A stretch of 21,914 nt of DNA from positions 1-21,914 of IMG/VR virus record IMGVR_UViG_3300027976_001848; one strand, given 5' to 3'. Below the pieces are notes generated by a model, which saw only the letters and a list, made by a program, of their open reading frames with translations, was not told the origin of the DNA and ran no database searches. Shown here in pieces: positions 5,944-15,823 of this stretch. The stretch's first letter is position 1, and each line of letters opens with the position of its first letter. The position numbers were made by a program, and so were the translations under genes. The stretch comes from a virus.

Positions 5944-6738
5944 TCAAGCAGAAGCCAAATCGGAAGGCATGTAAGCACAATCCTCAATTGGTGTCGGCAG
6001 CGAATCAACACAACGCCACGCTACAGGCCCACCGGATTGAATAGCCGCCTGATCCGACAGTGACCACGGATCAGCAGTTACACCAGCAGGAAGAAGCGTA
6101 GGAGCGGCACCCGTTGGATGACCCGCTGGATCACCAGAACCCGGCACCCAAGACGGGAAAGTTGCTCCCGGCATCGACGGGAACCAGCAAGGGTTGTTCT
6201 GAGCGTAACCCGAAAGGGTTAGTTCCAAAGCACCAATGGTGAAGTTCAGGCCGCCAGCAAGCTCCCAGTTTTTGGTGAGCGGGAAAACCCAGTGGATGTA
6301 CTGTGAAGAGTTCACACCATCAACAGAGCAGGAGTTCCCGGCGTTCTGTGACCACAACTCTAACGACTTAGACGATGAGCAAGGATCATCAAGGGAGTTG
6401 CGCATCGCAGCACCCAAGAAGTTGCCATCACCGTCGGTCAGCAGGGTTGCGTTAATCAGCATCTCGATAAGAGGTAGCGGAATGCCGCAAAGCTTTAACT
6501 CAACCGTGAATCCTTTAAGCCGGTCGCAGTCCTTGTTGCGGATACAAATCTCACCATTACCGTTTTTAGTGGTGATGTCTTCGCCGCCTTCGACATCAGG
6601 ACTCATGTTGAGTTCCATGAAACCGGAGGAAAGGACACGACTATTCAGTGTCAGCGGGTCAAGAACAACATCGTTGCTATCTTGCCGAGTAACACGAATT
6701 GCACATGCCTTGATTGACTTTGGGCAACAAATTGTCAT
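5944..6738 (-). CDS. Major tail (tube) protein, paralogue A
   Basis: A 264-aa virion protein, probably the tail tube. It starts MTICCPKSIKACAIRVTRQD and continues with GFMELNMSPDVEGGEDI, the tube-type core KGFTVELKLCGIPLPLIEML, QYIHWVFPLT, GGLNFTIGALELTLSGYAQN and a Pro-rich segment ending PSMPG. These segments are shared in order with the larger paralogue encoded two genes upstream. The placing of a conserved ELKLCG strand and GxxxLTLSGYA strand resembles actinophage major tail proteins; exact assignment is inference. AGGAGGG lies six bases before the ATG, the strongest ribosome site in this arm, suggesting high expression. It is the last gene before the terminator. Confidence 0.75.
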   Translation of the reverse strand: MTICCPKSIKACAIRVTRQDSNDVVLDPLTLNSRVLSSGFMELNMSPDVEGGEDITTKNGNGEICIRNKDCDRLKGFTVELKLCGIPLPLIEMLINATLLTDGDGNFLGAAMRNSLDDPCSSSKSLELWSQNAGNSCSVDGVNSSQYIHWVFPLTKNWELAGGLNFTIGALELTLSGYAQNNPCWFPSMPGATFPSWVPGSGDPAGHPTGAAPTLLPAGVTADPWSLSDQAAIQSGGPVAWRCVDSLPTPIEDCAYMPSDLASA

Positions 6739-6802
6739 TTCTGACCCTCCTAAGGATCGGACGTTGCGTAACAGTAATGCAGCCTACGCGTTACTGGAAG
6801 GA

Positions 6803-7396
6803 TTATGCTGATAGTGAAGCGATTAGACTTACGCGACCCTTACCAGAGGTTTCTGCTTTCAGAACTTGTTTCTTCAACGTAGGGTTGTTTTCAACGTACT
6901 CAAGAACCTCAGAAACGGTTAGTAGTGCAGGATCAACAATGTCGGCGACCTCGGTTGTTTCTTGCACAACGGGAGGGGTTACCGTCGCAGTACGTGTAAC
7001 AGATGCAGCAACTGATGCTAAACCTTCAACGGGCCGCACATTCCAAGGTTGTCCACCACGCGTAGTCTTCATTTTATCTCCAAACAATAAACCGTGTTTC
7101 TCAGTTGAAACACTGAAACCTTCAACAAAGTCTGCAACCACATTACCTTGAGAATTGCCGGGGACAACAATGGTCGCGTGAGGAAGCACAAACCTGACAA
7201 CGCTACCCGTACGGTTACTAAGTCGGCAGAATGCTTGTTCACCCATGATAGTGACATCGACACTGACGAGTGGACCCGTGACCGGCATTAAACGCTGGCC
7301 CAGAAGTTCACGCAACTCTGAGTCGTGACAAGGCTTGAGGTACTGACGAAACCACTCATGCTGCCGGTTCGATTTGAGGTACCGGAGAGCAATCAT
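6803..7396 (-). CDS. Structural-type protein between the tail-tube paralogues
   Basis: A 197-aa protein without a family I can name. Residues about 30-115 are beta-rich (VSVDVTIMGEQAFCRLSNRT, VVRFVLPHATIVVPGNSQGN). A Thr/Val-rich linker with paired VQETTEV follows, then a small helical C-terminal domain LTVSEVLEYVENNP...VLKAETSGKGRVSLI, similar to short helical modules found at the ends of phage head and tail proteins. The ATG at 7396 overlaps the upstream tail gene by 41 bases and has no ribosome site; Met37 (MPVTGPLVS) near 7288 is an alternative. Its place between the two tail-tube paralogues suggests a virion or tail-assembly role. Confidence 0.65.
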   Translation of the reverse strand: MIALRYLKSNRQHEWFRQYLKPCHDSELRELLGQRLMPVTGPLVSVDVTIMGEQAFCRLSNRTGSVVRFVLPHATIVVPGNSQGNVVADFVEGFSVSTEKHGLLFGDKMKTTRGGQPWNVRPVEGLASVAASVTRTATVTPPVVQETTEVADIVDPALLTVSEVLEYVENNPTLKKQVLKAETSGKGRVSLIASLSA

Positions 7397-8204
7397 TTAA
7401 CGCACCGGGCAGAGTGTCAACACATTTGTAAGCCACTGCTCCACCTGCCCGAATCTGCTGCATATCGGAAATCGTCCAACTATCAGCCACAACACCTGCC
7501 GGTAAAACGCACGGAGGTACACCACCAACGAACGGTTGAACAGACTGATAAGACGGAAAAGATGGGCCGGGCATCGAAGGATAAAACATCGGGTTCTTCT
7601 TCGCGTACCCTGACAAACTCAACTCGGTCGCACCGATATTAAAGTTTAGACCGCCAGACACGACCCAACGGTCTGTGTATGGCAGCACCCAATGGATGTA
7701 CTGGCCGAGAGTGTTCCCCGTCGCATCGCACGTTGTCGCAGCGTTTTTTGTCCACAAATCAATCATGAACGCAGTGCAGGAACCCCCGTTTTCCATATCG
7801 TTGTTGAACGGCCACCCAACTATGCTCACATCATCACCGTCGATATCAAGTAAAGCCCGGTTGTCTGCCATCCCGTTGAGAAGAAACATCGCGATCGTCG
7901 GCATTCCACACAGCTTTAACTCAAGTGTTAAACCTTTCATCTGGTCCGGCGGACGATGAATTACACCAATGCTATTCGCCGCAGGGTTCATCATCATTGT
8001 TTCGCTGCCCTGCTCGTAATCAGGGGAAAGGACAAGTTCTGAGAACCCGTTGGTCTGCCACCGTGACAGATCCACGGTCGGTGCAGGCGGAAACGGGATC
8101 AGCGCATCACCGGCAGAATGATCGCCGTAATACAAATCTAAAGGCGTGACACGAATCGCGAGCGCTTTAATTGACTTCGGGCAGCAATCAAACGTGACCG
8201 CCAC
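7356..8204 (-). CDS. Major tail (tube) protein, paralogue B
   Basis: A 282-aa paralogue of the tail-tube protein at 5944-6738. Shared blocks in the same order are CCPKSIKA-x-AIRVT, GF-x-EL with SPD-x-E-x-G, K/MKG-x-T-x-ELKLCG, QYIHWV-x-P-x-T, GGLNF-x-IGA-x-EL-x-LSGYA, NP...PSMPG...FPS, PAGV-x-AD-x-W, and CVD-x-LP. It has an extra Pro-rich insert near residue 45 (ALIPFPPAPTVDLSRW) and a longer centre. The frame extends to 8255, but GTG at 8204 lies two bases after the upstream stop and aligns with the start of paralogue A. Four conserved cysteines suggest disulfides or a bound metal. One copy may form the tube and the other a specialised section, or one may be a relic. Confidence 0.7.
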   Translation of the reverse strand: MAVTFDCCPKSIKALAIRVTPLDLYYGDHSAGDALIPFPPAPTVDLSRWQTNGFSELVLSPDYEQGSETMMMNPAANSIGVIHRPPDQMKGLTLELKLCGMPTIAMFLLNGMADNRALLDIDGDDVSIVGWPFNNDMENGGSCTAFMIDLWTKNAATTCDATGNTLGQYIHWVLPYTDRWVVSGGLNFNIGATELSLSGYAKKNPMFYPSMPGPSFPSYQSVQPFVGGVPPCVLPAGVVADSWTISDMQQIRAGGAVAYKCVDTLPGALNDCSPVPQIEPAA

Positions 8205-8206
8205 GA

Positions 8207-9460
8207 TCAGATCAGAGCTTCCTCGAAGTTCACCAGCACGGCAAACATGCAGCAACCGTCGGGGTTAACAGCCGCGGTACGCTCACCACGGTAAGTTACG
8301 GTGTTGGTCGCCCGGTCTAAAGCCTCAGCGATTGTCTCAGGGAAGATCATCGGCTCACCTAGCCTGACATCAACCATTCCGGTCGCATAAATCCATGCCT
8401 CACCGGCGGCAAGTTCATGAACCGCTGCGAAAGGTCCGACAGCCGGGTCGTAACCCGGACCGGAGACAACAATGTCGCCACGGCCACGGGTGAGTAAAAC
8501 ACCGTCGCCCTCGGTCCCACCGGGGCCAGAATCGTCGTCGATCAGATACCACTGTGCCATACGCTCAGCTACGACAGTCGGAGCGTGAATCATCCCTCTG
8601 CCGCCCGTGGCGCAACTACCAACAGCCTGCTCAAGCAAAGCCAGCCCTAACGCGACGTTCACCGCGACGGGTAGCGCCCAACCACCGGGGTTCACAATGT
8701 TCGCAGGAGGAGTCCAGAATCGGAGATTAATGTTAGCGACGTTTAACGCGCCGGACCAAAACTCGTTTTCGATTGCTTTGCCCGTACCCGCGGCCAACTG
8801 CCTCAACGCTTTGCCCGTGTAATCGTTTGCCTCAAACCCCCAAGAAGAACAGGTGTAAGGAACTTCAACGATAAACGGCTGGTAAATCAGTGGCCCTTGA
8901 TCGCCGTCATAATCTTTCTTCACATCGGGTGGGGAAAGCTCAGGGACACCCGGAATTTGTATCGGAGTGATTAGAATTGTGTCTCCGCCGGAACCGCCAG
9001 AAAGATCAACATCAGAGGGGATAAGGCCGCCGAGCGCGGCTTGAGAGTTTGTGGTAAGAACAATAACGAACGCGGCGATCTCCCCTGTTACAGGGTCGAT
9101 GCCGGAAGGCCCGCCAAGAACAACCAGTAGATCTACGGGGAAACCCGTTGAAAGGATCGCTGCGATGATCTCATCTGTTGTCGCGTTCCAAGGGATCGGA
9201 TCGGAAATTGTGCCGCCGTTCCCGGTGTTGTCCCACACCCAAGTACCTGCCGTAGCGTCAATCTGTAGTGTGATAATAAAGTTGTTTCCAGCGCCGCAAG
9301 GAATCCAAACCTCGGAGCTAACACAGTTCTCGGGTTGGAAGACAAACCCTGCTTCCCAGCGTGAGTCGGGTTCGACGACAATATTTGCCGAGTCTAAAAG
9401 GCCATGCAACGCGCGTTCTGTGGCGGGTGGGCGTACAACAGCTTCAGGTGAAATGCCCAC
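8207..9460 (-). CDS. Virion protein with inserted beta domain
   Basis: A 417-aa probable virion protein. GTG at 9460 is chosen because AGGAG lies seven bases upstream; the longer TTG form has none. Residues about 59-170 form an inserted module (FIITLQIDATAGTWVWDNTG, IPWNATTDEIIAAIL, VVLGGPSG) that also occurs in the plus-strand adaptor. Outside the insert are PFIVEVPYTCSSWGFEANDY, a helix KALRQLAAGTGKAIENEFWS, GRGMIHAPTVVAERMAQWY, VVSGPGYDP, EAWIYATGMVDVRLGEP, and a C-terminal NTVTYRGERT. This layout fits a capsid- or tail-associated shell-type protein of actinophages, but I cannot name it. It lies between the glycosyltransferases and the tail-tube genes. Confidence 0.65.
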   Translation of the reverse strand: MGISPEAVVRPPATERALHGLLDSANIVVEPDSRWEAGFVFQPENCVSSEVWIPCGAGNNFIITLQIDATAGTWVWDNTGNGGTISDPIPWNATTDEIIAAILSTGFPVDLLVVLGGPSGIDPVTGEIAAFVIVLTTNSQAALGGLIPSDVDLSGGSGGDTILITPIQIPGVPELSPPDVKKDYDGDQGPLIYQPFIVEVPYTCSSWGFEANDYTGKALRQLAAGTGKAIENEFWSGALNVANINLRFWTPPANIVNPGGWALPVAVNVALGLALLEQAVGSCATGGRGMIHAPTVVAERMAQWYLIDDDSGPGGTEGDGVLLTRGRGDIVVSGPGYDPAVGPFAAVHELAAGEAWIYATGMVDVRLGEPMIFPETIAEALDRATNTVTYRGERTAAVNPDGCCMFAVLVNFEEALI

Positions 9461-9546
9461 GGAGCAACTCCTACTAGGGGAACAGATTACCAACCATACT
9501 CGCAAAACTTGAGCTAACCGGGGAGAGTTAGGGCTTTACAAGTTCA

Positions 9547-10134
9547 TCACGCACCGTGGGAGTTGGCCCAATGGTGCGCACCGAACGTCCCCGGATGAAC
9601 CGTGTGATCCTCATCACGCCGATGTTTCTCATTCCAAAGGTAAGGCGAAAAAGACCGCGGCGGTAACAGCAGCACATCAGCTTTGTCACGAAAAAGGTCG
9701 TTCACAACCTTCGGCCCTGAATGCAAAGCACCTAACGGCAACCTCTCAATCGCCAAACTGATTGCTTCTCGCATCAGCCGATGCCCCGCGACAGCCCCTA
9801 AAACAGCGTCGTTTAACGACCACGGCGACTCCCAAGTCGCAAACACATCATACGGAAGCAACGAATCAAGCGGTCTGAACAACTCAACATCAGAATCCAA
9901 ATAGATCCCACCAAAATGCCATAACGCTTCCAAGCGGATCAGGCCCGCCATCTGCGCCCCCGAAGCACAATCCGCCCAGTGTGGGGAGGTGAGGGGAAAC
10001 TTTGCGGGATCTACAGGATCGCGGAATGTCACATAATCCCAATGCGGATGCAAACCGCACGCGCCACGCCAAAACGTTTCAGCCTCAAAAGAAGTCTCGG
10101 CAGGAACAGTCCGTATCAGTCGTGCAGGGATCAT
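9547..10134 (-). CDS. GT32-type glycosyltransferase
   Basis: A 195-aa glycosyltransferase with a GT-A fold similar to the GT32/OCH1 and capsular-sugar transferases. It begins IPARLIRTVPAETSFEAETF, followed by LIRLEALWHFGGIYLDSDVE, where the DSD at 80-82 is the metal- and nucleotide-sugar-binding DxD motif. A C-terminal PYLWNEKHRRDEDH...HHWANSHG segment matches the usual H-x-x-x-x-S/W ending. It would transfer a sugar from a nucleotide donor to an unknown acceptor in the cytoplasm. The start overlaps the stop of the upstream glycosyltransferase as ATGA, so the three genes are one unit. At 195 aa it is on the short side but appears complete. Confidence 0.88.
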   Translation of the reverse strand: MIPARLIRTVPAETSFEAETFWRGACGLHPHWDYVTFRDPVDPAKFPLTSPHWADCASGAQMAGLIRLEALWHFGGIYLDSDVELFRPLDSLLPYDVFATWESPWSLNDAVLGAVAGHRLMREAISLAIERLPLGALHSGPKVVNDLFRDKADVLLLPPRSFSPYLWNEKHRRDEDHTVHPGTFGAHHWANSHGA

Positions 10135-10732
10135 CGTTGAGCAATCAACTTTCGCATCGCAGTCGGGTTACTAACGGCACGCCAATACTCTCCCACCAAA
10201 TCACGGTTCGGTTGAGCGCATATACGCTCAGCGTCAGAATGCCACAAAGAAACTGCTAACCCCGGATGGCGTACAACCCCCACCAAACATTTTGCAACAG
10301 CAACAAGCTGATCGTCGTCGCCACCCCACCCGACGAACCGTTCGTCCTGACCCCCGACAGTCTCCCAAAATGTGGGGGTGACGACATGCACACCGCCGTT
10401 AGCTAACCCCGGCGGAGAATCTGTGCCAGCGTAGACACAGTTGTCAAATGGGATGTGAAGACGATGATCGCCTGCCTGAGCGATCGCAGCGGCTAGCGCC
10501 GACGGCGGGGGTAGCGTATCTGCATCAGAAATGATAATCACATCAGCGCCTAAACCCGCTGCGAGTTCAACTGCCGCATTGCGACACGCACCAAGGTTAA
10601 ACGGTTCATGATCTGTATCAACAGTCATAATCTGTGCCTCAGGGACATGCACCGCGTACCATGCCGCACAAGATGATACGCGGGGACGCGGGCTGTTCTA
10701 GCTCTCCACGGGATCATCACCGCGACGTTCAA
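10131..10732 (-). CDS. Galactosyltransferase-like GT-A enzyme, apparent frameshift
   Basis: A GT-A glycosyltransferase of about 200 aa split over two frames. The first part starts TTG at 10732, which overlaps the upstream stop as TTGA with GAGGG at good spacing, and reads MNVAVMIPWRARTARVPAYH then LVR. The second part, from about 10661, reads WYAVHVPEAQIMTVDTD and continues with FNLGACRNAAVELA, the DAD motif in VIIISDADTLPP, ANGGVHVV, and the acceptor-side motif GWGGDDDQL typical of galactosyl/N-acetylgalactosaminyl-transferase C-domains. Joining the frames needs a -1 shift (or one missing base) at 10661-10664. The downstream frame alone offers only a GTG at 10652 and would lack the first beta strand. 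Either a sequencing error, a recent mutation, or recoding; there is no classic slippery heptamer. Confidence 0.75.
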
Positions 10733-11670
10733 CGCTTCAGACCCTCAACAGATTTCACAAACAGCACAGCACCCTCATAGGAATCCAATTGAGCAACTCT
10801 TACCGATGCTTTGACACAAGCCGCAGACCATACGTCACCCTTGAGCAGGTGCCGCAAACCTTCGATCCAACCCTTAAAATTGTTTTGCTCCACAAAGACA
10901 CCCGCATCCCCCAAGGATTCTTTCAACCCCGGAGTCGGTGAAGCCATCACCGGGATACCGGAACACATCGCCTCAACACCAACCATCCCCCACGTCTCAG
11001 CCTTGGAAGGCATCAACAAGACGCGTGTTCGTGCGTACACGTCGTCACGCATGTTCTGCGTGCAGGCAACAACTTCAACGTTTCGCCCGACAACAGAACG
11101 CTGCGCACCATACCCGCCTTTCACTCCCAAAAACTGTACATCAGGCATGAAACGAACAAGTTTCTGAAACATGGCTACGCCTTTAGAATCAGAAAGATTA
11201 ACAAACGTAACCCTATCGCCCGGTGTTGTCTCAAAGGCTTGCCGATCAAATATGGGGTGAACAACAATATGCGGGCATCTGTGCCGGGCTATCAACGCTG
11301 ACGACTCAGAGTTGAAAACAAGTAGATCAGGCGGGGAGTCGCTCATCTGCCGGAGAGCATCGTGGCCTATCAGCCCGTGAACCATCCGCACCGACGGGAT
11401 GTTGTGATACACGGCAAGCCTATGAGCGTGACCCGAATCACCCAAGTGAGAGATAACAACATCAGCGCCCGCCACGGTTTCTTCCATGCGTTCCAAACCG
11501 GGAACAACGCGCACACCATCCAGAAGGTATTCCGGCCCGCCACTCATCACGGGGTTCGCGACAACATCATGCCCGGCAGCGTTCAACACTTTTAGAAACT
11601 CATGTGTAGATAGCCATGACCCAACCCGAGATTCCGGCGGATACATCGGCACTACAGCACCAATTCTCAT
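10729..11670 (-). CDS. GT4-family glycosyltransferase
   Basis: A 313-aa glycosyltransferase of GT-B fold. The N-terminal domain starts MRIGAVVPMYPPESRVGSWL, the usual GT4 opening with a glycine-rich loop. The C-terminal domain has VTFVNLSDSKGVAMFQKLVR and the donor-binding block LLMPSKAETWGMVGVEAMCS then GIPVMASPTPGLKESLG, which contains the E-x7-E pair (Glu225, Glu233) of retaining GT4 enzymes. It is the first of three overlapping glycosyltransferase genes inside a virion operon, which suggests a virion protein as acceptor, or a host surface sugar. The ribosome site is weak. A terminator lies 35 bases upstream, so it probably relies on readthrough or a weak promoter in that gap. Confidence 0.9.
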   Translation of the reverse strand: MRIGAVVPMYPPESRVGSWLSTHEFLKVLNAAGHDVVANPVMSGGPEYLLDGVRVVPGLERMEETVAGADVVISHLGDSGHAHRLAVYHNIPSVRMVHGLIGHDALRQMSDSPPDLLVFNSESSALIARHRCPHIVVHPIFDRQAFETTPGDRVTFVNLSDSKGVAMFQKLVRFMPDVQFLGVKGGYGAQRSVVGRNVEVVACTQNMRDDVYARTRVLLMPSKAETWGMVGVEAMCSGIPVMASPTPGLKESLGDAGVFVEQNNFKGWIEGLRHLLKGDVWSAACVKASVRVAQLDSYEGAVLFVKSVEGLKR

Positions 11671-11704
11671 CGGCTCATACTAACAAACAAACTAACTGTA
11701 AACG

Positions 11705-11732
11705 CGAAAAAGGGGCCGGTTTCCCGACCCCT
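11705..11732 (-). terminator. Terminator after the major capsid gene
   Basis: On the minus strand AGGGGTCGG (11732-11724) pairs with CCGGCCCCT (11719-11711) around a GAAA tetraloop, followed by TTTTT. The 9-bp stem has one G-T wobble, a stable GNRA loop and a T run, the hallmarks of an intrinsic terminator. It lies 24 bases after the capsid stop codon and would set capsid mRNA level above that of the downstream glycosyltransferase genes. The plus-strand version has a mismatch and no T run. Confidence 0.85.
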
Positions 11733-11756
11733 CCCATCGCTAAACGTTGCGCTTTG

Positions 11757-13562
11757 TTAAGCGCACACCAAAGGCGTAACAGCCTCAGGGCCGGTACCAT
11801 CAGGGCAAAGAGTGATCTCAAGACGGAGAGACTCCAAACCAACCTGACAAACCTGAACCCACTGCTCAGAGAAGATTTGCAGATCGTTAGTACCGTTAAG
11901 GATTGAATCCCGCACGATACCAACATCTAGAGTTCCACCATCAAGGCGAACATACGTTCCCGGAGCGAACATGTAACCAACAATTGAAGTTGGGAACGGG
12001 TTAATCACACCAGCACCTTGAATGTCATTGAATGCCTGACCAGCGCCCGTCGCCGAGTCGTAGTACCAAGCAACATCAAGATTCGCAGAAGCCAACCATG
12101 CGGTCACTTCAGACTCACCGGCGTTTAAGAAGTTCAACCCGAGCGCATGATCGTTTACCATGTCAACCTTGATAAACTCAACAGTCCAAGAAGGAAGCAT
12201 CACAGTCAACACAGAGTTGGTCGCCATGTGCTGACGGCGACGATAATTCGCTGCCGCAGCAAGGATTGTCTGTGTCACACCGCGAGTCGCACCATAAGCG
12301 GGTGCGGCTGTCACAGCGGTAGAAGTTGCGTCAATCGCATCCAGATAGAAGATTTCCTTAGTGGAAGTAAACGCCACCGCAAGGTCTTCAAGGAACGCAG
12401 CAACCTGCTCAGGGAACACCCGATAGTTGAGGTTGCCGAACTCCACACACTGAGAAACAGCGTCAACCAAGCATTCCTCAATCGGGGGACAATCAACATG
12501 CACGCAAGGCTTAGGCGCAGTCAAACCGCTAGCAGACCCATACCCGGCGGCATCTTCAGCTTCAGTTGTGACACGAACACCCGCAAGGGCATCGGTCCAA
12601 TCCGGCGGGGTAATAAAGCGGATACCGCCACGAGGTGCCTCAACTGACGGCAAAGTCTGCTCAACAGGATTCAGAGGCTCTGCCAGACGGAAGAACTCAT
12701 ACGAAGGCGGGATAGGTGCGCAGTTGCCACCAGAAGCGACAAGCGAAGTACGCTCACGAGTCGAAGCGGCCCACTCGGCACGCACAGTGTCAAACACTGA
12801 GAAGTTTTCCTCAGCGCCACCAGACACCTTATTGGGAAGATCCGACTGGGCAGTTGCAAGAACTACACGCTCGTAAGTGCCACTGGAGGCATTGTTCATG
12901 CCGTGACGTTTCTTGGTGATCGCCGTTGCAAGCTGCATACGATCTAGTGCTGTTCCCTCGCTAAGACCGGGGATCGCATTGGATGCGTGCAGGATTGCGC
13001 CCGATGGAGCGGAATCGGCCAGAGGTGTTACACCCTCTGGTATACGCCGGGTCAGTGCAGAACTGGCCTCGGCACCTGTAAGGGAATTGCTGTCTTCCAC
13101 TGTGACCTCCAAGGACAATTCAACGGTTTCTGTTTTTTCAACCTCTTCGACCAGAATGGTCTCAGCGGGTACTTCTTCTTCTACTTCTACTTCGGTTGCC
13201 AGTTCGACAACCTCGCTAGGAGCGTCATCCTCAGATGAAAGCTCGACAACGACCTCGGTTGACATAACCACTTCAGCCTCAATTGCGGTTTCAACAACCT
13301 CATCTGCAACTGGTTCGACGAAATGATCCATTGCAGCAGCAATCCGATCACTGCGATCTTGCAGTTGTGCTGACCGCGAGTCAAGTTCTTTGGCAATGCG
13401 ATCGTAATCGGCAACAAGTGCCTCGACCATAGCTAGCGCTTCGTCGGATGTGGCTGCATCGCCACCCATTGCTTCTGCTTCGGCACGAACACTCTCAGCG
13501 AGCGCCTTGAGATCAGCGTCGGCAATGGCTGTTAGGTCTTCAGGTACAACGATGTGATCCAA
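11757..13562 (-). CDS. Major capsid protein with N-terminal scaffold-like domain
   Basis: A 601-aa HK97-type capsid protein. Residues 1-80 are helical and coiled-coil-like (ADLKALAESVRAEAEAMGG, ADYDRIAKELDSRSAQLQDR), followed by an acidic Glu/Val-rich region (about 82-157) and a Ser/Thr/Pro stretch; together they resemble a fused scaffold or delta domain. From about 200 the shell domain includes RAEWAASTRERTSLV, PRGGIRFITPPDWTDALAGV, PEQVAAFLEDLAVAFTSTKE, NYRRRQHMATNSVLTVMLPS and a C-terminal beta region. Cys353, 358, 364 and 372 form a cysteine-rich loop. Start is TTG with GGAGGAG seven bases upstream. Identification rests on layout and on the shell-domain pattern, with no cleavage site identified. 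Confidence 0.8.
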   Translation of the reverse strand: MDHIVVPEDLTAIADADLKALAESVRAEAEAMGGDAATSDEALAMVEALVADYDRIAKELDSRSAQLQDRSDRIAAAMDHFVEPVADEVVETAIEAEVVMSTEVVVELSSEDDAPSEVVELATEVEVEEEVPAETILVEEVEKTETVELSLEVTVEDSNSLTGAEASSALTRRIPEGVTPLADSAPSGAILHASNAIPGLSEGTALDRMQLATAITKKRHGMNNASSGTYERVVLATAQSDLPNKVSGGAEENFSVFDTVRAEWAASTRERTSLVASGGNCAPIPPSYEFFRLAEPLNPVEQTLPSVEAPRGGIRFITPPDWTDALAGVRVTTEAEDAAGYGSASGLTAPKPCVHVDCPPIEECLVDAVSQCVEFGNLNYRVFPEQVAAFLEDLAVAFTSTKEIFYLDAIDATSTAVTAAPAYGATRGVTQTILAAAANYRRRQHMATNSVLTVMLPSWTVEFIKVDMVNDHALGLNFLNAGESEVTAWLASANLDVAWYYDSATGAGQAFNDIQGAGVINPFPTSIVGYMFAPGTYVRLDGGTLDVGIVRDSILNGTNDLQIFSEQWVQVCQVGLESLRLEITLCPDGTGPEAVTPLVCA

Positions 13563-13589
13563 TTTACAACTCCTCCAGCTTGAGCAGTT

Positions 13590-13648
13590 ATTATATTCTG
13601 CTCACCTATGGTCAACCCTTATGTGTCTGTTATAGAAACACAAGGGTT
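13590..13648 (-). promoter_or_regulatory. Capsid promoter with overlapping inverted repeat
   Basis: A perfect minus-strand TATAAT (13595-13590) lies 28 bases before the capsid start. TTGACC (13615-13610) is 14 bases upstream of it, closer than the usual 16-18. A long imperfect dyad, AACCCTT-AT-GTGT (13614-13626) with ACAC-AAGGGTT (13638-13648), covers the -35 zone, as expected for an operator. It may instead be a hairpin in the upstream transcript, but no T-tract follows. The gap 13563-13693 holds no gene. Confidence 0.55.
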
Positions 13649-13693
13649 ATTGATCGGATACCTTACGGCAGAAACGTCAAGTTACCGTGATAG

Positions 13694-14035
13694 TCACTCA
13701 ACACGTCTTTGAGCGCCGGGCGGCCGGGGCGGGGCTGGCGTTGATCTTCCCTCAACAAACTGTGACCCCGGCCACACGGATTGGCTGGTGCCATCCGTCG
13801 CAGGGCTACCTGACGGCATCTCTTCTTCAAGCCGTTTCAGTAAAACATCGACAGGTTCCCCGGTGATGGAACCGTAAATCGCTACTGCTCCGGCAACCCA
13901 TCCAGACAGTCGGTTGCGTTCATCATCTCTAGCGGTTACAGCTTCACGCCATGCTGAGCGGATGCGTGCAAGCGCAGCAGACCCGTCAGGTTTCTTCCCA
14001 CGGTTCTGCTTGTGCCGTGAGCTTTCGATACTCAA
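13694..14035 (-). CDS. Hypothetical protein with unusual start, follows WhiB
   Basis: I do not recognise this protein. Its conserved-looking core is PDGSAALARIRSAWREAVTA, DDERNRLSGWVAGAVAIYG and a helix EPVDVLLKRLEEEMP; the C-terminus is a disordered Pro/Gly/Arg tail. The start is unclear: the only ATG in frame (14140) lies 155 bases inside the WhiB gene, in its conserved region. TTG at 14035 still overlaps by 50 bases but has AAAGGA about 15 bases upstream; a CTG at 14047 has that same site at ideal spacing. The TTG is used here. It is 113 aa in this form. Its role next to WhiB and the capsid promoter is unknown. Confidence 0.45.
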   Translation of the reverse strand: MSIESSRHKQNRGKKPDGSAALARIRSAWREAVTARDDERNRLSGWVAGAVAIYGSITGEPVDVLLKRLEEEMPSGSPATDGTSQSVWPGSQFVEGRSTPAPPRPPGAQRRVE

Positions 14036-14324
14036 TACGATTTTCAGTTTGTATCCTTTCTCGTGCTGAGCGTTTTGCTGCCCGACGCATCTCTTTTCTT
14101 TGTCTCCCAGAAGTCCCGCCGTACACCCCGTCGTCCTCATCTATGTTCGCAGTCAAACATTCCTGTTGGACCTCACATTGCACACAGAACTGTTTGGCTC
14201 TTACAACATCTTGATACTGGCCTTGTTTTGGAAAGAACATACTAGGGGGTTTCCCCCGGCAACGTGCTTGGAGTTTCCAGTCATCCGGTTCTTTTACGAT
14301 GTGCTGAGGATAACAAAAGTTCAC
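13986..14324 (-). CDS. WhiB-family Fe-S transcription regulator
   Basis: A 112-aa WhiB-like protein. DWKLQARCRG carries the first cysteine (Cys22), then FCVQCEVQQECL supplies Cys47, Cys50 and Cys56 in the C-x2-C-x5-C spacing. The turn motif DDGVYGGTSGRQR (G-V-Y-G-G at 66-70) is the WhiB signature, followed by a basic Arg/Lys-rich tail for DNA contact. Such proteins bind a 4Fe-4S cluster and sigma factor; phage copies can reprogram host transcription. Start is GTG; ATG in another frame overlaps it as ATGTGA, and no strong ribosome site is seen, so leaderless translation is possible. It is divergent from the plus-strand structural arm and probably controls one or both arms. Confidence 0.93.
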   Translation of the reverse strand: MNFCYPQHIVKEPDDWKLQARCRGKPPSMFFPKQGQYQDVVRAKQFCVQCEVQQECLTANIDEDDGVYGGTSGRQRKEMRRAAKRSARERIQTENRIEYRKLTAQAEPWEET

Positions 14325-14385
14325 ATGGATGTTTCACTCATCGCTATCTAAATTTTGTTACATACCTTCGTCCATCTTGGGCCGT
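14325..14385. promoter_or_regulatory. Divergent intergenic region between the two arms
   Basis: This 61-base gap separates WhiB (minus) from the plus-strand structural arm, so both promoters must lie here or in coding sequence. It is A/T-rich in the middle (TCTAAATTTTGTTACAT, 14347-14363). TAGATA on the minus strand and TTGTTA on the plus strand resemble promoter hexamers, but no full -35/-10 pair at good spacing is evident. A mini frame MSETSM ends on the WhiB start. Confidence 0.35.
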
Positions 14386-14637
14386 ATGCTCAAATATATG
14401 CACGATGCACTAGAAGCGAAGAAAGATATGACTGCTTTAATGGCAGCAGTGTTGCTAAAAGATTGGGAGGGTCTTCTTCACTTGATCGGCGGTTTGAGTG
14501 AGAAGGAATCTAAGGCCGTCATAGTTTCGCTAACTGGGTTACTTGGTCAACTGGTATTTAACTTTGCCGCACATTCAGATGTTGACCCATTGGAGTTTTG
14601 GTTAGAAGCAATGGAAGGCACCCACTCAGAAGAATGA
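14386..14637 (+). CDS. Small helical hypothetical protein
   Basis: An 83-aa, mostly alpha-helical protein that opens the plus-strand arm: MLKYMHDALEAKKDMTALMA, DWEGLLHLIGGLSEKESKAV and GLLGQLVFNFAAHSDVDPLE. The amphipathic pattern and lack of a signal suggest a soluble helical bundle. The frame extends to 14329, but ATG at 14386 avoids overlap with WhiB; ATG at 14398 is also possible. No strong ribosome site is visible. I do not recognise it; it may be regulatory or an accessory of head-tail joining. Confidence 0.6.
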   Translation: MLKYMHDALEAKKDMTALMAAVLLKDWEGLLHLIGGLSEKESKAVIVSLTGLLGQLVFNFAAHSDVDPLEFWLEAMEGTHSEE

Positions 14638-14662
14638 GCGATGCAGCATGTAAGCTGAAATT

Positions 14663-15823
14663 GTGGCAGCGCCTCCTCCCCCCCCTTGTACTCAGTGGAC
14701 AACTGATGAGCAGGTTCGCGCCTGCTGCACGGGCCTAGACCCCGCGTTCGACCTGACTGAAGCAATCCAGTTCGCGTCAGAGATTCTGTTTAGATTGTCC
14801 GGGCGACGCTGGCCCGGAGAATGCACTCGCACAGTTTTTCCATGCGCCGGAGACAACTGCGGTTGCAACGCTGACACATGGTCTTGGTTTGCTTCATCCG
14901 GTTGGGGTTGGGCGTACGCTGGTTACCCTTCGTTGCCGTACATGGTCGCGGGCGGATGGGTCAACAAATGGCAGGGATGCCGTGGGGTTTGCCACTTGGA
15001 TTGTGTTGATCTTCCCGGTACGGTTGATGAGGTTACCGAGGTTTTGATTGATGGTGTGGTTTTAGACCCGTCGGCCTACAAGGTTGAGGCTTACAGGCGT
15101 GTGTGTCGCGTGGATGGCGGCCACTGGCCATGCTCTAATGATCTAGGCGCTGAGCAGTGCGCTCCGGGCGGCAACCAAGACCTTGGTATGAGCTTCACGG
15201 TTGACGCGACCGGCGGCTCTTGGATTCTCAGCATGGCCGATCCGGGTGGCGGTAGTACTGCTATCAGCGTCCCTTACGATGCTTCTGCTGCTGCGCTCTC
15301 AGCGCTAATCGAAGCGGCGGTTGGTGTTGGATCTGTTGTGGTTTCGGGCGGGCCGGGCGATGCCGGGGGAACTAACCCTTACTTAGTGCTATTTGATCCG
15401 GTGGTTATCGGTTACGTCCCGTCGGTTACCAGCACGTTTGGAGCGCTAATCGGAGGAACAGCACCTTCCTCGCAGACTATTTATCAGACAGGTTGCCTTG
15501 CTGGCACTGGAACATGGTCAATCACTTATGTTCAAGGATCACCACCCCCGCCGGGTGGGCAGATGGCAGCAGCAATCTTCGCTTGCCAGATCGCACTGAA
15601 CCAGTGTGGTGGCGATGGGTGCATACTCCCGCAACGGCTGAAACAAATCACTCGTGAAGGCGTTTCAATGGAGTTTGCAGACCCGCTGGTATTCCTCGAT
15701 AAGGGCCAAGTGGGGATTTATGAGGTTGACCTCTGGGTTAAGTCTGTTAATCCGGCTGGTCTGCAAAGAAGGGCAGCGGTATATCGGGCTGATGAGAAAA
15801 AGCGTCCGACGACGTGGACGTGA
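14663..15823 (+). CDS. Head-to-tail adaptor with inserted beta domain
   Basis: A 386-aa virion connector. The first part (FDLTEAIQFASEILFRLSGR, RWPGECTRTVFPC) and last part (YVQGSPPPPGGQMAAAIFAC, LPQRLKQITREGVSMEF, VGIYEVDLWVKSVNP) match the actinophage adaptor that binds the portal. Between them, residues about 172-268 are an inserted domain (MSFTVDATGGSWILSMADPG, ISVPYDASAAALSALIEAAV, VVVSGGPGD) homologous to the insert in the minus-strand virion protein at 8207-9460. There are 17 cysteines, many near the N-terminus, suggesting disulfides or metal binding. Start is GTG after a weak ribosome site; the N-terminus is a run of five prolines encoded by a C-rich tract. Confidence 0.82.
   Translation: MAAPPPPPCTQWTTDEQVRACCTGLDPAFDLTEAIQFASEILFRLSGRRWPGECTRTVFPCAGDNCGCNADTWSWFASSGWGWAYAGYPSLPYMVAGGWVNKWQGCRGVCHLDCVDLPGTVDEVTEVLIDGVVLDPSAYKVEAYRRVCRVDGGHWPCSNDLGAEQCAPGGNQDLGMSFTVDATGGSWILSMADPGGGSTAISVPYDASAAALSALIEAAVGVGSVVVSGGPGDAGGTNPYLVLFDPVVIGYVPSVTSTFGALIGGTAPSSQTIYQTGCLAGTGTWSITYVQGSPPPPGGQMAAAIFACQIALNQCGGDGCILPQRLKQITREGVSMEFADPLVFLDKGQVGIYEVDLWVKSVNPAGLQRRAAVYRADEKKRPTTWT

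What the first reader, a model, noticed from the sequence alone, without database searches (positions are those of the whole stretch)
8981..15466. One beta-type domain inserted into two unrelated virion proteins on opposite strands
The minus-strand virion protein (insert about 8981-9286) and the plus-strand adaptor (insert about 15176-15466) both carry a module of about 100 aa with T-x-DAT-(A/G)-G-(T/S)-W, a Gly-rich turn, (I/V)-P-(W/Y)-(N/D)-A-(T/S), an Ala-rich helix and V-V-x-GGP. In each host the flanking parts read as a normal protein without it, so it looks like a mobile decoration module displayed at both head and neck. I cannot name the family. It could bind host sugar or be an acceptor for the glycosyltransferases in the same arm; that is speculation.
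Basis: partly seen in the sequence, partly recalled or inferred. Interest (0 to 1): 0.72.

Follow-up and report, generated by a model that had tools for sequence, protein, structure and literature searches.

The report
Shared surface domain on phage head, neck
This actinobacterial phage carries the same roughly 105-residue surface domain spliced into a head-shell protein and into the ring protein that joins head to tail; the domain belongs to a common but unnamed phage family already solved on mycobacteriophage Bxb1, so the architecture is of a known kind, with two carriers that are new to me.

Summary
Two virion proteins, on opposite strands, carry homologous inserted domains of about 105 residues: window 8960-9286 (-) and 15173-15493 (+). 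Profile-profile comparison of the two module families gives 98% probability (E 2e-13; reversed controls under 1%). Relatives without the insert exist for both hosts, so it is a true insertion. The family is not new. It occurs on major tail proteins, sheaths, Dit/minor tail proteins, head decoration and major head proteins, and is solved three times on phage Bxb1 (tail-tip cage, capsid protein, tail tube); the adaptor module matches these at Z 9.4-11.5. What is added here: the host at 8207-9505 has the HK97 shell fold with the module in its E-loop, and a head-tail adaptor carries the module in a hairpin loop. The head insertion looks older. Between close relatives the adaptor module is 34% identical while its flanks are 90%, which fits wholesale exchange of the module. 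The likely role is weak attachment to host surface glycans, by analogy with phage Douge; this is inferred. The idea that it is a glycosyltransferase acceptor is not supported. 'Opposite strands' reflects an inversion of the head block in this phage.

The parts
8210..9460 (-). HK97-fold head protein (PHROG_779 family, near the major head protein); probable GTG start at 9460; ORF as listed runs 8207-9505
   Evidence: PHROG_779 E 4.6e-25; AF2 model pLDDT 79; VIA-align Z 14.1 to encapsulin 6x8m, 13.8 to HK97 2frp_G
8960..9286 (-). Inserted beta-domain in the E-loop of the head protein (about residues 59-167 of the 417-aa protein)
   Evidence: Alignment A5: present in window, L010, L009, L012, L013, L038, L017, L039, L040; absent in L042-L053; strand order; HHalign
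14663..15823 (+). Head-tail adaptor (PHROG_783)
   Evidence: PHROG_783 E 1.8e-53 in two stretches; 816 phage records match one or both flanks; adaptor core aligns to T5 and DT57C neck proteins, Z 7.4 and 6.9
15173..15493 (+). Inserted beta-domain in the adaptor, in a hairpin loop between residues about 160 and 283, flanked by a conserved Cys pair (C166, C278)
   Evidence: Module pLDDT mostly 70-94; Z 11.5, rmsd 2.1 over 93 residues to Bxb1 tail-tip cage 9d93_Ma; family profile i-E 7.5e-9; empty sites in L017, L044, L045
11757..13562 (-). Major head protein (PHROG_777), context
9547..11670 (-). Three glycosyltransferase genes between the head genes, context
   Evidence: Pfam; conserved in L009-L016, not found in L017, L039, L040

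Best explanation
A portable virion-surface beta-domain of the kind found on Bxb1 has been grafted into loops of two unrelated virion proteins: the E-loop of an HK97-fold shell protein and a hairpin loop of the head-tail adaptor ring. Shown by computation: common ancestry of the two modules, membership in the Bxb1-type family, insertion in both hosts, HK97 fold of the head host, and far greater divergence of the adaptor module than of its flanks. Inferred: that the modules point outward on the virion, that they bind host-surface glycans weakly and in many copies so that the particle is held at the cell while the tail tip finds its receptor, and that the module is exchanged as a unit when the host surface changes.
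For: Homology: HHalign 98.0%, E 1.8e-13 between module families; each against 59 unrelated virion modules 98.8% and 98.4%; reversed controls under 1%. Family and fold: Bxb1 9d93_Ma, 9d9w MCP, 9d93_Ja MTP by sequence and, for the adaptor module, by structure, Z 11.5, 10.8 and 9.4. Predicted secondary structure of both modules runs in the same order: strands, a helix, then strands with a short helix. Insertion: relatives of both hosts without it. Promiscuity: 94 carrier ORFs on 80 viral contigs, assigned to major tail, sheath, minor tail, head decoration and major head families; about ten contigs carry it in two nearby virion proteins. Divergence: window versus L002 adaptor flanks 90-91% identical, module 34%; dN 0.08 versus 0.70; sharp borders. 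[quoted passage not shown]
Against: No binding data exist for this family that I could find. The Douge domains did not come up in the profile search of solved structures, so the glycan analogy is not homology. The head-protein module of the window is very divergent and could have lost any binding site. Exchange of the adaptor module is not proven: the module tree differs from the identity pattern of the flanks, but not significantly (AU p 0.16), so one burst of fast change remains possible. Orientation on the virion was not modelled.
Confidence: 0.5

Rival explanations
1. Structural role: the modules stabilise the particle, for example by bridging neighbouring shell subunits at the E-loop and by forming a collar where shell and adaptor ring meet.
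For: E-loops are capsid contact sites in HK97-fold shells (general knowledge); in Bxb1 three such domains in the tail-tip protein shape the baseplate barrel (PMC13252515); a conserved Cys pair brackets the adaptor module.
Against: Most relatives of both hosts do without it; the adaptor module diverges far more than its flanks, unlike a conserved contact surface.
Confidence: 0.25
2. Neutral or selfish decoration: the domain spreads by recombination between virion genes and is tolerated in exposed loops without a specific role.
For: Very wide and patchy distribution; the tail FN3 domain of SPP1 is not needed for infection (PMC8718954).
Against: The module is kept in every adaptor of the clade and in every head protein of nine lineages, and dN within the clade is far below dS.
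Confidence: 0.15
3. Acceptor for glycosylation by the three neighbouring glycosyltransferases, which would mask the virion.
For: The three genes lie between the two head genes in this clade and match glycosyltransferase families.
Against: L017, L039 and L040 have the module, two of them in its canonical form, and no detectable relatives of these enzymes.
Confidence: 0.08
4. Coincidence: two unrelated beta-rich inserts with similar motifs.
For: Direct BLASTP is weak.
Against: Profile, shuffle and structural evidence.
Confidence: 0.02

Closest known systems
Mycobacteriophage Bxb1 virion domains (PDB 9d93 tail-tip cage gp23, 9d9w/9d9x major capsid protein, 9d93/9d94/9d9l tail tube gp19)
   Same: Same family by sequence (E 2e-57, 1e-9, 1e-6) and the same fold as the adaptor module (Z 11.5, 10.8, 9.4); likewise one domain in several unrelated proteins of one virion.
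   Different: In Bxb1 the carriers are capsid (C-terminal), tail tube (C-terminal) and tail-tip cage; here they are an HK97-fold E-loop and the head-tail adaptor, both internal insertions.
Douge capsid and tail-tube Ig-like domains (PMC13033339)
   Same: Surface domains on two virion proteins of an actinobacterial phage; shown to bind host-surface glycans.
   Different: Not found by the module profile in PDB; homology not shown.
Promiscuous Ig-like domains of tailed phages (Fraser et al. 2006, as cited in PMC8718954 and PMC10684548)
   Same: Same way of being used: accessory beta-domains scattered over virion proteins and suspected of weak carbohydrate binding.
   Different: No Pfam family, Ig families included, matches the modules; the fold has an inner helix; Ig chains align only at Z about 4.
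Family 2B encapsulins (9bhu, 9bje; PMC12407261)
   Same: HK97-fold shell protein with a foreign domain inserted in the E-loop, displayed outside, and the most variable part of the protein.
   Different: The inserted domain is a cyclic-nucleotide-binding-like fold, not this one.
PHROG_783 head-tail adaptor
   Same: Flanks of the adaptor are ordinary members.
   Different: Members checked in known phages lack the insert.

Membership tests
Bxb1-type virion beta-domain family | Sequence profile match (TGGTF..(I/V)..YNATAAAVQ..L....V.VTGG) | tested here: met
   Adaptor module i-E 7.5e-9; head modules of L017, L040 4e-19, 1e-19; window head module only through its family
Bxb1-type virion beta-domain family | Same fold | tested here: met
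   Adaptor module Z 11.5/10.8/9.4, rmsd 1.9-2.6; head module judged by strand order only
Bxb1-type virion beta-domain family | Sits on virion proteins as a separable domain | tested here: met
   Relatives with and without it
Bxb1-type virion beta-domain family | Exposed on the particle surface | not testable with these tools
   No assembly model could be made
Phage Ig-like domains (Pfam Ig families) | Match to an Ig-like Pfam model | tested here: not met
   No Pfam hit for the window modules up to E 1, and for two relatives' modules up to E 10 only one sub-threshold DUF
HK97-fold shell proteins | N-arm, E-loop, spine helix, P and A domains | tested here: met
   Z 14.1 to 6x8m (235 residues, rmsd 4.4), 13.8 to 2frp_G (216 residues, rmsd 3.6)
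HK97-fold shell proteins | Forms part of the capsid shell | not testable with these tools
   Gene lies near the major head protein in all relatives; needs virion proteomics or cryo-EM
Head-tail adaptor PHROG_783 | Profile match over both halves | tested here: met
   E 1.8e-53, two stretches
Glycan-binding domain | Binding of host-surface glycans | not testable with these tools
   Analogy with Douge only

The most novel reading that the evidence does not exclude
The domain is an exchangeable attachment cassette: phages swap its alleles as a unit inside otherwise frozen neck and shell proteins, so that head and neck, not only the tail tip, follow changes of the host surface.
Probability: 0.25. 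Interest if true: 0.6.

Novelty: new variant of a known kind. Interest (0 to 1): 0.42.

Why it matters
It places a widespread, unnamed virion domain in two further sites, the neck ring and the E-loop of a shell protein, and gives natural with/without pairs for both. The 34% versus 90% contrast in the adaptor makes the old question of whether such decorations follow the host surface testable by comparison. It also suggests that PHROG_779, listed as unknown function, is an HK97-fold shell protein.

Tried and rejected
tblastn of either window module against phages found nothing up to E 10; the family appeared only when the L017 module was used. Pfam and PHROGs gave no hit for the window modules alone. 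A mixed alignment was too diverse for a collection scan. The tree of 79 modules groups the head and adaptor modules of this clade (99/96), which would suit a copy made inside one genome, but long branches are in play and the clade tests do not decide (p 0.48-0.70). Incongruence between adaptor module and flanks: not significant (p 0.16). PDB profile search with the head protein found only chance matches before the structural search settled its fold. Module as glycosyltransferase acceptor: rejected as main reading. The Bxb1 paper is not held, so its own wording was not read.

Full report
The two segments are real and homologous. The minus-strand protein (8207-9505) and the plus-strand protein (14663-15823) each carry about 105 extra residues with shared motifs. 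Direct comparison is weak, but comparison of the two module families by HHalign gives 98.0% and E 1.8e-13, and 91.7% with only the close head proteins; reversed profiles give under 1%. A profile made only from unrelated virion modules ranks these two ORFs first and second of 134 in the window, and none of 1000 shuffles of either reaches its score. The window's own head module is divergent (4.2 bits); its membership rests on relatives with the same insert at the same place, of which L017 and L040 are canonical.

Both are insertions. The adaptor matches PHROG_783 in two stretches, the second beginning at profile position 151, with the module between them. The two-piece matches that I checked among 816 phage records span about 95-135 residues less than the query, and L017, L044 and L045 read straight through the site. 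The head protein lacks the module in L042 to L053 and in known phages. The head insert is present in L017, L038, L039 and L040 and the adaptor insert is absent from L017, so the head insertion looks older. L068, at 57% identity, already has the adaptor insert.

The hosts. The plus-strand host is a head-tail adaptor. The minus-strand host belongs to PHROG_779, of unknown function; its model (pLDDT 79) has the HK97 fold, with Z 14.1 to an encapsulin and 13.8 to HK97. The module lies before the spine helix and splits the E-loop (from the strand order and alignment; the exact docking was not inspected). That position has a precedent in Family 2B encapsulins (PMC12407261).

The family is known by structure if not by name. 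Profile search of PDB finds the Bxb1 tail-tip cage (several copies), capsid protein and tail tube, and the adaptor module superposes on them at Z 11.5, 10.8 and 9.4, rmsd 1.9-2.6 over 86-93 residues. Weaker similarity reaches sheath domains of Mu and Milano and flagellar cap domains. In phages it is found by tblastn in 506 records at a loose limit, in sheath, major tail, Dit and minor tail proteins. On 80 viral contigs it lies in 94 ORFs, 28 at the C terminus and 66 internal (a few are overlapping frames), assigned to major tail, sheath, minor tail, head decoration and major head families. PHROG_783 was not among the 25 of 37 families shown, so the adaptor is an unusual carrier, though not proven unique. 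The domain also occurs in large proteins of Planctomycetes, Chloroflexi and Solirubrobacter.

Evolution. Between the window and L002 the adaptor flanks are 90-91% identical and the module 34%; dN is 0.08 and 0.70, with sharp borders. Between L002 and L013 the two parts differ little in rate (flank 0.073, module 0.121). L068, with flanks at 62-71%, has a module 42% like the window's. Replacement of the module in one lineage is the simplest reading; a burst of change is not excluded (AU p 0.16). In the head protein the contrast is milder (62% versus 82-84% against L010).

Function. Isolated Ig-like domains of Douge capsid and tail tube bind the M. smegmatis surface and LAM/AM and alpha-glucan fragments (PMC13033339). 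The present family is not shown to be homologous to those, so attachment is an inference from place, likely copy number and divergence. A structural role is the main rival. The glycosyltransferase idea is weak because the module occurs without them.

Strands. In L009, L010, L013 and L016 the order WhiB, MCP, glycosyltransferases, head protein, tail proteins, adaptor lies on one strand; in the window the WhiB-to-tail block is inverted, with a break near 14324/14329, also seen in a second contig with 100% identity (L001/L018).

Noticed in passing
window 5944-14324: The block from WhiB to the second major tail protein is inverted relative to close relatives, which encode it on the same strand as the adaptor.
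   Followed up: partly
L017:13627-15483: The adaptor of this relative lacks the module but carries an intein (Hint, LAGLIDADG) at residues about 61-404, with Cys at both splice borders.
   Followed up: partly
window 8210-9460: PHROG_779 (unknown function) has an HK97 fold, so phages of this type may have two HK97-fold shell proteins.
   Followed up: partly
L021:9557-10702, L046, L047, L050: Adaptors of another actinophage group have a different C-terminal extension of about 125 residues.
   Followed up: no
L070-L084: The same domain occurs in bacterial genomes, including proteins of 1300-3400 residues in Planctomycetes, Chloroflexi and Solirubrobacter.
   Followed up: no
window 13986-14324: WhiB family regulator (Pfam E 1.7e-16), pointing to an actinobacterial host.
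   Followed up: no
window 5944-6738 and 7356-8255: Two genes of the same major tail protein family (PHROG_792) with one ORF between them; kept in relatives.
   Followed up: no
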